From Tetracentron sinense (Eukaryota > Streptophyta > Magnoliopsida > Trochodendrales > Trochodendraceae), in contig CM026551.1 of NCBI GenBank assembly GCA_015143295.1, forward strand, positions 12,945,827-13,009,826: DNA of 64,000 nucleotides. Direction: 5' to 3'. Of this stretch, positions 48,901 through 51,900 are shown piece after piece. A program made the position numbers and the translations under genes. Each line of letters begins with the position of its first letter. Position 1 is the first letter of the stretch. Under the pieces are notes generated by a model, which saw only the letters and a list, made by a program, of their open reading frames with translations, was not told the DNA's origin and made no database searches.

Positions 48901-51900
48901 GGCTGTGGGCATAATTTGCTAGAGATACATCTTTATCAAGAAATTATTATTATTTTTTTATATTTCAATATAGTGAAGCTTTTTTTTAATTAAAGCCTCC
49001 ATATAATTTATAAAAAGAGTGAAAGTGTGAAACTAGCATTACCTTTTAAATTTTAGGTTAAAATCCCTAACATTAACCAGATAACTTTTTTACAAAAAAG
49101 AATGCATTAACAATTAAATAACCCTTATAAGGGTTTATTTAAAAATTAAAATAGAAAAAACGACCTTATATTACAATTTTTAATACTTTTTAAAATTGGG
49201 TATAAAATATAAATCAATATTAGTTTACAACATATTACTTTTTGTCATATAATATAATTTCTAATATGGCAGACCAGTTTTAAAAAAAATTTCTCTTCAA
49301 AATAGTATGTTTTATAATCTTTTAAAATTATGTAATAAAAATAGTATAATAATTTATAAATTTTTGTGCTAAAAAGTATGTTAACTTATTAATCAAAGTG
49401 ATTACCGATTAGTAAAAGTTTGTTAAATTTTTTTACAAAAAAGAATAGTTAAGTGATTACTAATTAGTCAAGGTGTTATTATATTTTTAAAAAGCCCTTA
49501 TGAGGTTAGAGATATTACATATAAATTATTTCTAATTTATAAAATATTATTAAGAAATTATTAATTTTTAATATATCTAAAATGGTCCTTGTGGGCATAA
49601 TTTGCTAGAGATACATCTTTATCAAGAAATTATTATTATTTTTTATATTTCAATATAGTGAAGCTTTTTTTAATTAAAGCCTCCATATAATTTATAAAAA
49701 GAGTGAAAGTGTGAAACTAGCATTACCTTTTAAAGTTTAGGTTAAAATCCCTAACATTAACCAGATAACTTTTTTACAAAAAAGAATGCATTAACAATTA
49801 AATAACCCTTATAAGGGTTTATTTAAAAATTAAAATAGAAAAAACGACCTTATATTACAATTTTTAATACTTTTTAAAATTGGGTATAAAATATAAATCA
49901 ATATTAGTTTACAACATATTACTTTTTTTCATATAATATAATTTCTAATATGGTAGACCAGTTTTAAAAAAAATTTCTCTTCAAAATAGTATGTTTTATA
50001 ATCTTTTAAAATTATGTAATAAAAATAGTATAATAATTTATAAATTTTTGTGCTAAAAAGTATGTTAACTTATTAATCAAAGTGATTACCGATTAGTAAA
50101 AGTTTGTTAAATTTTTTTACAAAAAAGAATAGCTAAGTGATTACTAATTAGTCAAGGTGTTATTATATTTTTAAAAAGCCCTTATGAGGTTAGAGATATT
50201 ACATATAAATTATTTCTAATTTATAAAATATTATTAAGAAATTATTAATTTTTAATATATCTAAAATGGCTTGTGGGCATAATTTGCTAGAGATACATCT
50301 TTATCAAGAAATTATTATTTTTTTTTATATTTCGATATAGTGAAGCTTTTTTTAATTAAAGCCTCTATATAATTTATAAAAAGAGTGAAGTGTGAAACTA
50401 GCATTACCTTTTAAATTTTAGGTTAAAATCTCTAACATTAACCAGATAACTTTTTTACAAAAAAGAATGCATTAACAATTAAATAACCCTTATAAGGGTT
50501 TATAAGGTAATGCTAGTTTCATAGAAAAAAATGCATTATCATACAAATAAAATGACATGTCACCACCACCAGATTTTAGCCTTAAGAGGGGAAGTGATCT
50601 GGTGTGTCGTCTTGAAGGAGGCAATGAATGGATTAATAACAATCCTCTAGAGCTTGGTGTGAGTGATTTAGTAACACTGTCCTAGATACTGGGTTACAAG
50701 CAATGTTCAGTTGATCATACATTGTTTGTGACGTACAAGTGGGTTGTTGGCATGACTATTCTCATTGTATATGCGGTTTTAATGCTATTTACTAGTGAGG
50801 ATCCGAGCTGAAAGTTCGGCGGCTAATGGATTATCTTATAGGGTCGTTAAGTTTTAAATATGGACTTGAGTGAACCTCTACGGTATATCCTTAAAAGGTT
50901 TAAGCTCGATGGCTATCGAGGTTCTGATGTTCAAATAGGGATACCTTTATAGTGTTTAAATATGTTTTTGATCTTCAGTAGATGAGAATCGTTGAGGGCA
51001 AGGCCATGTGATGCACCATGGAACGAAAATCACTGCTAGGAAGTGCAAAAGGAAATATACGCAGATATGGCCTCTATCAACGACTAGTTGGGAAGTGTCT
51101 ATCTCACCAACACTAAGCCTGATATCTTATGCTGCCAGCATTGTCAGCTAATAATGCATGCACCTCTAGTTCCTCATCTTGATGTTGTTTATGCGTTGCG
51201 AACGGTATCTCAATTCTCAAGTCGACTGCCGACGGCAAAGGATTCGGTGTGATAATCATTGACTCTTTGATGTGATATGCTCCAACGATCGTGGTTGGTA
51301 TGAGTGTCTTCCATCCTTACCAGAGAGAGAAGCAACTTCGGGAAGCGGGAAGCGAGGCTTCTAAATCAACCCTCTGGGAAATGAGAGTTAAACGAGTAAG
51401 AAACGATTAAGGAAGTGTTCAAGAAACGATCAAGAAGTGAGTAAGAATGCTATGTAGGTTTTTCGAGCAAGAAGCGTTGAGGAAGCGAACAATGAATCGG
51501 CACCACTCACGGGTTTTCTGTAGTCAAGTAGCGATTGGGAATTAGTTAATTATTTTGAAGTTGTATAAGTGCTTTCCACTGTGATAATACAATAAGGGAA
51601 CCCTGACCGAAAGATAATACAATGCATTTGGACTGGGACATCACCCGACATATAGATCGATAAATCACAAGGCATGGTATCAGCGATATATCGCAAGATA
51701 CCAACCGAATACCTAGTGTATTATTTGTTCACCACAGAATGTATCGATGCATCGGTCTTCAACGATATCAAAAAATATCGGCGATATAAGGACGATTTTT
51801 CGATTGTGTACAGAACCGAGTTTAATGGCAATTGATTGGGATCCAATCTCCAATGACATGACTCTTGTGGCCCAATGGGTTAAGTCACCGTCGTGTCCTC

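What the first reader, a model, noticed from the sequence alone, without database searches (positions are those of the whole stretch)
50555..51824. Sequence that interleaves two alleles, block by block
Over 1.27 kb the sequence follows 41990-43184, but in-order blocks from 53604-54391 are spliced between (for example 'aatgaatcggcaccactcac', 'gggaaccctgaccgaa', 'gacggcaaag'). Both sources keep their order, and joins fall at short chance matches. Transposition, recombination or gene conversion do not give dozens of alternating fragments; a consensus between a hAT-bearing and a hAT-free haplotype does. The blocks are seen directly; the cause is inference.
Basis: partly seen in the sequence, partly recalled or inferred. 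Interest (0 to 1): 0.8.

Follow-up and report, generated by a model that had tools for sequence, protein, structure and literature searches.

The report
Assembly artefact blending two alleles
A 1.3 kb stretch of this plant-like genome looks like a scrambled weave of two unrelated sequences, but it is best explained as a computer-made consensus of two versions of one site, one with a jumping gene and one without, next to a false duplicate of the neighbouring DNA.

Summary
50555-51832 (M) is an in-order interleave of 41990-43192 (A, left flank of a hAT transposon) and 53604-54391 (B, right end of that hAT). A two-source alignment scores 909, against a maximum of 725 for 20 dinucleotide shuffles of B and 723 for 20 other window segments. 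Of 1278 bases, 899 come from A, 346 from B and 33 from neither, with 62 switches.

The hAT spans 43193-54391, with 8-bp target duplications ATGGCAAT (43185-43192, 54392-54399). M ends on the same 8-mer joined directly to the right flank, i.e. an empty site, and the weave stops there. The next 1771 bases repeat the hAT's right flank at 1758 of 1773 aligned columns. So an empty-site version sits inside the filled one.

Simulated noisy reads of both versions, merged by a partial-order consensus, give the same kind of weave at near-equal mixtures (59-65 switches in 4 traced runs), though not its exact proportions. No reads or second assembly were available. An artefact, low interest.

The parts
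50555..51832 (+). Mosaic M: in-order weave of A and B ending on the single-copy target site ATGGCAAT
   Evidence: Two-source alignment and controls; empty site
41990..43192 (+). Source A: left flank of the hAT insertion, holding a Ty1/copia-type reverse transcriptase fragment, ending in target duplication 43185-43192
   Evidence: Exact-match list, RVT_2 hit to 42112-42336, target duplication
53604..54391 (+). Source B: right end of the hAT element, ending in its terminal inverted repeat
   Evidence: Exact-match list, terminal repeat and target duplication
43193..54391 (.). hAT element as assembled (11,199 bases; 8,150 if 50555-53603 is not part of it, inferred)
   Evidence: Terminal repeats CAAGGTTC / GAACCTTG, 8-bp target duplication ATGGCAAT
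45345..47048 (-). hAT transposase, first long ORF (zf-BED, DUF659)
   Evidence: Pfam
43573..44871 (-). hAT transposase, C-terminal ORF (Dimer_Tnp_hAT)
   Evidence: Pfam
51825..51832 (+). Empty target site ATGGCAAT joined directly to the right flank
51833..53603 (+). R1: right flank that goes with the empty site, duplicate of R2
   Evidence: 1758 matches, 13 mismatches, 2 gap columns against 54400-56172
54400..56172 (+). R2: right flank of the filled version
53603..53604 (.). Join where R1 stops and B starts; R1/R2 identity ends here

Best explanation
The stretch is not a real chromosome sequence. The sequenced material held two versions of this site, most likely the two alleles of a heterozygous individual: one carries the hAT (A, hAT, right flank) and one is empty (A' joined directly to the right flank). 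Noisy long reads of both overlap through the shared right flank. Left of the insertion point their non-homologous parts (A' and the hAT end B) were forced into one alignment graph, and the consensus path hopped between the two, mostly at chance shared bases. The blended sequence plus its right flank (50555-53603) was then kept next to the true end of the hAT version (B plus R2), giving a false duplication. Shown: the weave, its order, the empty site, the duplication, and that a graph consensus can make this kind of weave. Inferred: heterozygosity (pooled individuals or homoeologous copies would do as well), the read mixture, and the step at which the assembler failed.
For: Score 909 against at most 725 in 40 shuffle and segment controls. 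The path uses 899 A, 346 B and 33 other bases with 62 switches. The B share is 0-8% in the two leftmost 100-base bins and 39-59% in the four bins nearest the insertion point, uneven in between. Replacement lengths match (r = 0.91, n = 31). M ends on the target site; target duplication and terminal repeats place A and B at the two ends of one hAT. R1 and R2 are allele-like. POA simulations, 10 runs per mixture of empty to filled reads: 12:0, 9:3 and 8:4 gave no switches by 12-mers, 7:5 gave 0-4, 6:6 gave 4-14, 5:7 gave 2-12; observed 13. The first four 6:6 runs, traced, gave 59-65 switches against 62 observed and mean join microhomology 1.31-1.57 against 1.13. Right of the insertion point, the simulated consensus recovered 99.9-100% of flank bases on average in every mixture (extra bases are not penalised in that figure); the first 300 flank bases were exact in 6 of 8 runs.
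Against: No reads, depth or second assembly could be examined, and the genome is not held. A backbone column vote did not give such blocks: 7 of 8 runs had no B 12-mer, one had 6. The POA runs do not match the proportions: observed 429 A and 111 B 12-mers; 6:6 runs averaged 246 A with 5-39 B, 5:7 runs averaged 15 A with 234-351 B, and an 8:8 run had 264 and 42. M is longer (1270 against a 6:6 mean of 1107), its longest B block is 48 against 13-19 and its length balance 0.91 against 0.11, 0.59, 0.61, 0.84 in the four traced runs. Some simulated runs had a B 12-mer out of order (3 of 8), M has none. The simulation starts both read classes at the ends of A and B, which favours a full-length blend. 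There is no N at 53603/53604 (the window holds none), although PMC9516828 (passages) lists gaps between same-scaffold pairs as a characteristic of false duplications. The 51 bases just left of M are not explained.
Confidence: 0.93

Rival explanations
1. Real DNA made by microhomology-mediated template switching during break repair at the hAT end, alternating between A and B.
For: 50 of 52 direct joins share at most 2 bases, and 35 of 52 share at least one, as template switching would allow (recalled).
Against: 62 switches in 1.28 kb with both sources moving forward, ten long B blocks in order without backtracking, B pieces replacing similar lengths of A (r = 0.91), and an end exactly at the target site. 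Swapping the halves of B costs 82 points and permuting it in 8 blocks 91-147. I know of no repair process that advances two unrelated templates in step (recalled; my one literature search on templated insertions was seen as a listing only).
Confidence: 0.03
2. The empty-site copy (A' plus R1) is a real segmental duplication inside the hAT, and only its left part was blurred in the assembly.
For: R1 and R2 are 99% alike, and a duplication inside the element would leave this layout.
Against: The copy carries an empty site, so it would have to derive from a version without the hAT and then land inside the hAT of the same locus. A false duplication of the other version needs no further event.
Confidence: 0.03
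3. Chance similarity: M is merely a diverged copy of A.
For: A alone explains much of M (542 points).
Against: 909 against a maximum of 725 in 40 controls; exact B matches up to 49 bases, in order.
Confidence: 0.005

Closest known systems
Mosaic consensus of collapsed alleles in diploid assemblies
   Same: A sequence that matches no real allele, made where two haplotypes share one consensus. [quoted passage not shown] PMC8445201 (abstract and passages) reports hundreds of artefacts in a mosaic consensus assembly.
   Different: Here the two versions are not homologous over the blended stretch (transposon end against flank), so the blend is visible as dozens of blocks rather than as mixed small variants or frameshifts.
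False heterotype duplication
   Same: Both alleles of a heterozygous region are laid in one haploid assembly as if paralogues (PMC9516828, passages).
   Different: No gap between the copies, and one copy is itself blended.
hAT transposons (zf-BED, DUF659, Dimer_Tnp_hAT)
   Same: 8-bp target duplication, short terminal inverted repeats, transposase domains.
   Different: Nothing unusual seen; the element is only the polymorphism behind the artefact.

Membership tests
Mosaic consensus artefact of two alleles | Sequence is an in-order path through two source versions | tested here: met
   909 against at most 725 in 40 controls; permuted B 762-818, halves swapped 827
Mosaic consensus artefact of two alleles | Blend is confined to where the versions differ | tested here: met
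   Stops at 51832, the target site; right flank then 1758 of 1773 columns identical
Mosaic consensus artefact of two alleles | A consensus procedure given both read classes makes such a blend | tested here: met
   In kind, by my own small POA code at near-equal mixtures, not in exact proportions; a backbone vote did not
Mosaic consensus artefact of two alleles | No single read carries the blend | not testable with these tools
   No reads are held
False heterotype duplication | Neighbouring near-identical copies with allele-like divergence | tested here: met
   13 mismatches and 2 gap columns over 1771/1773 bases
False heterotype duplication | Gap between the copies on the same scaffold | tested here: not met
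   The window holds no N; PMC9516828 lists gaps as a characteristic (passages), not as a requirement
False heterotype duplication | Half read depth and one-copy k-mers | not testable with these tools
   No reads are held
hAT transposon | 8-bp target duplication and terminal inverted repeats | tested here: met
   ATGGCAAT on both sides; CAAGGTTC / GAACCTTG
hAT transposon | hAT transposase domains | tested here: met
   DUF659 1.7e-52, zf-BED 1.2e-5, Dimer_Tnp_hAT 7.9e-11
Microhomology-mediated template switching | Physical presence of the joined sequence in DNA | not testable with these tools
   No reads are held

The most novel reading that the evidence does not exclude
The weave is real DNA, produced by a repair process that copied two unrelated templates in step, with about 60 switches in 1.3 kb, after excision of or a break beside the hAT.
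Probability: 0.02. Interest if true: 0.9.

Novelty: not a real feature. Interest (0 to 1): 0.12.

Why it matters
As biology it does not: the assembled layout of 50555-53603 (a repeat copy, a duplicated flank, an 11 kb hAT) should not be trusted. It is useful as a fingerprint. A weave of two unrelated sequences that ends exactly on a transposon target site marks a place where an assembler blended a filled and an empty version of one site, and suggests that the sequenced individual was heterozygous for this hAT.

Tried and rejected
A backbone column-vote consensus was tried first and did not make the blocks (8 runs); a partial-order graph did. A k-mer graph assembler was considered and rejected by argument: 50 of 52 direct joins share at most 2 bases, far below a usual k. 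Extending the weave left of 50555 was tried with subsequence tests of 50504-50554 against the A side, two tandem-unit starts and B's start; 169, 449, 450 and 495 of 500 shuffles reached the observed value, so none is supported, and the best local match elsewhere in the window was 30 columns at 58323-58352, not assessed further. The host genome is not held and no species was identified. Eight literature searches gave general accounts of mosaic consensus and false duplication; two searches found no paper, (template switching) and one search were seen as listings only. PMC10873711 (passages) only uses the phrase 'chimeric consensus reference genome'. I make no claim that this exact pattern is unpublished.

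Full report
Setting. The window looks like a plant genome: MYB-CC type exons, a copia-type reverse transcriptase fragment and a DUF659/hAT transposase. No genome is held for it and the species was not identified; 'plant' is an inference.

Observation. Self-comparison shows 50555-51672 matching 41990-43058 at 86.6% with 77 gap openings, and 51489-53603 matching 54103-56172 at 95.8%. Exact matches, with no order imposed, show A blocks and B blocks both in increasing order along M; the exceptions are second hits in repeats and one 9-base hit. I then built a two-source alignment that lets M take letters from A or B, both only forwards, with a fixed cost per switch. It scores 909; A alone 542; reversed B 706. 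Controls: 20 dinucleotide shuffles of B, mean 714.5, max 725; 20 other segments of the window, mean 705.7, max 723; reverse complement 689; halves swapped 827; B permuted in eight blocks, 6 runs, 762-818. The drop on swapping and permutation shows that the order of B matters, not only its content.

Anatomy. The best path uses 899 A letters, 346 B letters and 33 that fit neither, of 1278, with 62 switches. Between A runs, 31 of 58 intervals hold B letters: 361 bases inserted, 281 A bases skipped, length correlation 0.91. So B pieces mostly replace A pieces. With reversed B the correlation is 0.57, the longest block is 6 bases and no block reaches 10, against 10 such blocks and a maximum of 48 with true B. 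B letters by 100-base bin from left to right: 8, 0, 24, 40, 3, 5, 23, 16, 33, 52, 39, 57, and 46 of 78 in the last; highest near the insertion point but uneven. Of 52 direct joins, 17 share no base, 33 share 1 or 2, and 2 share 4 and 6.

What the sources are. A ends with ATGGCAAT followed by CAAGGTTC; B ends with GAACCTTG followed by ATGGCAAT and the right flank; M ends with ATGGCAAT followed directly by the same right flank. So A and B lie at the two ends of one hAT insertion (43193-54391; transposase ORFs on the minus strand), and M runs into the empty site. A second, shorter hAT copy at 29108-30512 with its own 8-bp duplication GTTAAGTA supports the placing of the element ends. After the target site, R1 (51833-53603) and R2 (54400-56172) differ by 13 substitutions and 2 gap columns, like two alleles. 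R1 then jumps to B. The assembled order is therefore: A, hAT left part, weave, R1, B, R2. Without 50555-53603 the rest reads as one filled version; the weave plus R1 is a damaged copy of the empty version (inference).

Mechanism. I simulated reads of the empty version (A plus right flank) and of the filled version (B, target site, right flank) with a nominal 10% error setting, all reads full-length and starting at the ends of A and B, which favours a full-length blend. A backbone column vote gave damaged A but hardly any B blocks (8 runs with mixtures from 14:2 to 8:12; 7 with no B 12-mer, one with 6). A partial-order graph with a heaviest-bundle consensus gave the weave (8 runs; 60 runs). In one search, 10 runs per mixture: 12:0, 9:3 and 8:4 no switches by 12-mers; 7:5 0-4; 6:6 4-14; 5:7 2-12; observed 13. 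The right flank was recovered to 99.9-100% on average in each mixture, and its first 300 bases exactly in 6 of 8 runs. The first four of the ten 6:6 runs were traced with the same alignment: 59-65 switches against 62 observed; A:B:neither for example 827:239:25 against 899:346:33; mean join microhomology 1.31-1.57 against 1.13. True B beat reversed B in all four (711, 752, 713, 707 against 616, 684, 592, 633). Not matched: observed 429 A and 111 B 12-mers, while 6:6 runs averaged 246 A with 5-39 B and 5:7 runs 15 A with 234-351 B; M is longer than the 6:6 mean (1270 against 1107); its longest B block is 48 against 13-19, and its length balance 0.91 against 0.11, 0.59, 0.61 and 0.84; 3 of 8 runs had a B 12-mer out of order, M has none. 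The simulation shows that this class of program can make this kind of weave; it does not identify the program used.

Rivals. Template switching in repair would have to advance two unrelated templates in step through about 60 switches and stop exactly at the target site; I give it 2-3%. A real duplication inside the hAT with later blurring is possible but needs an extra event.

Known kinds. [quoted passage not shown] PMC8445201 (abstract and passages) reports artefacts in a mosaic consensus assembly. PMC9516828 (passages) describes heterotype false duplications and lists gaps between same-scaffold copies as a characteristic; here there is none. The finding is best filed under these, made unusually visible because the two versions are unrelated over the blended part.

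Limits. No reads, depth or second assembly could be consulted. The 51 bases 50504-50554 are not explained.

Noticed in passing
29108-30512: A second, shorter hAT copy with similar ends (91% over 299 columns and 82% over 128 columns against the ends of the large one) and an 8-bp target duplication GTTAAGTA.
   Followed up: partly
48447-50503: Three tandem units of about 690 bases, 97-98% alike, inside the hAT; whether all three are real is open given the artefact next to them.
   Followed up: no
50504-50554: 51 bases between the last tandem unit and the weave that match neither source beyond chance.
   Followed up: partly
1-1607: Dense tandem repeat array with many overlapping self-matches at about 72-82% identity.
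   Followed up: no
42715-42935 and 52190-52330: Seen by eye: runs of GAAGCGA-like motifs in A and of reverse-complement-like motifs in R1 (and R2), perhaps the two arms of another nested element.
   Followed up: no
11618-13325 (minus strand): MYB-CC type transcription factor exons (Myb_CC_LHEQLE above its cut-off; the Myb DNA-binding hit is below its curated cut-off).
   Followed up: no
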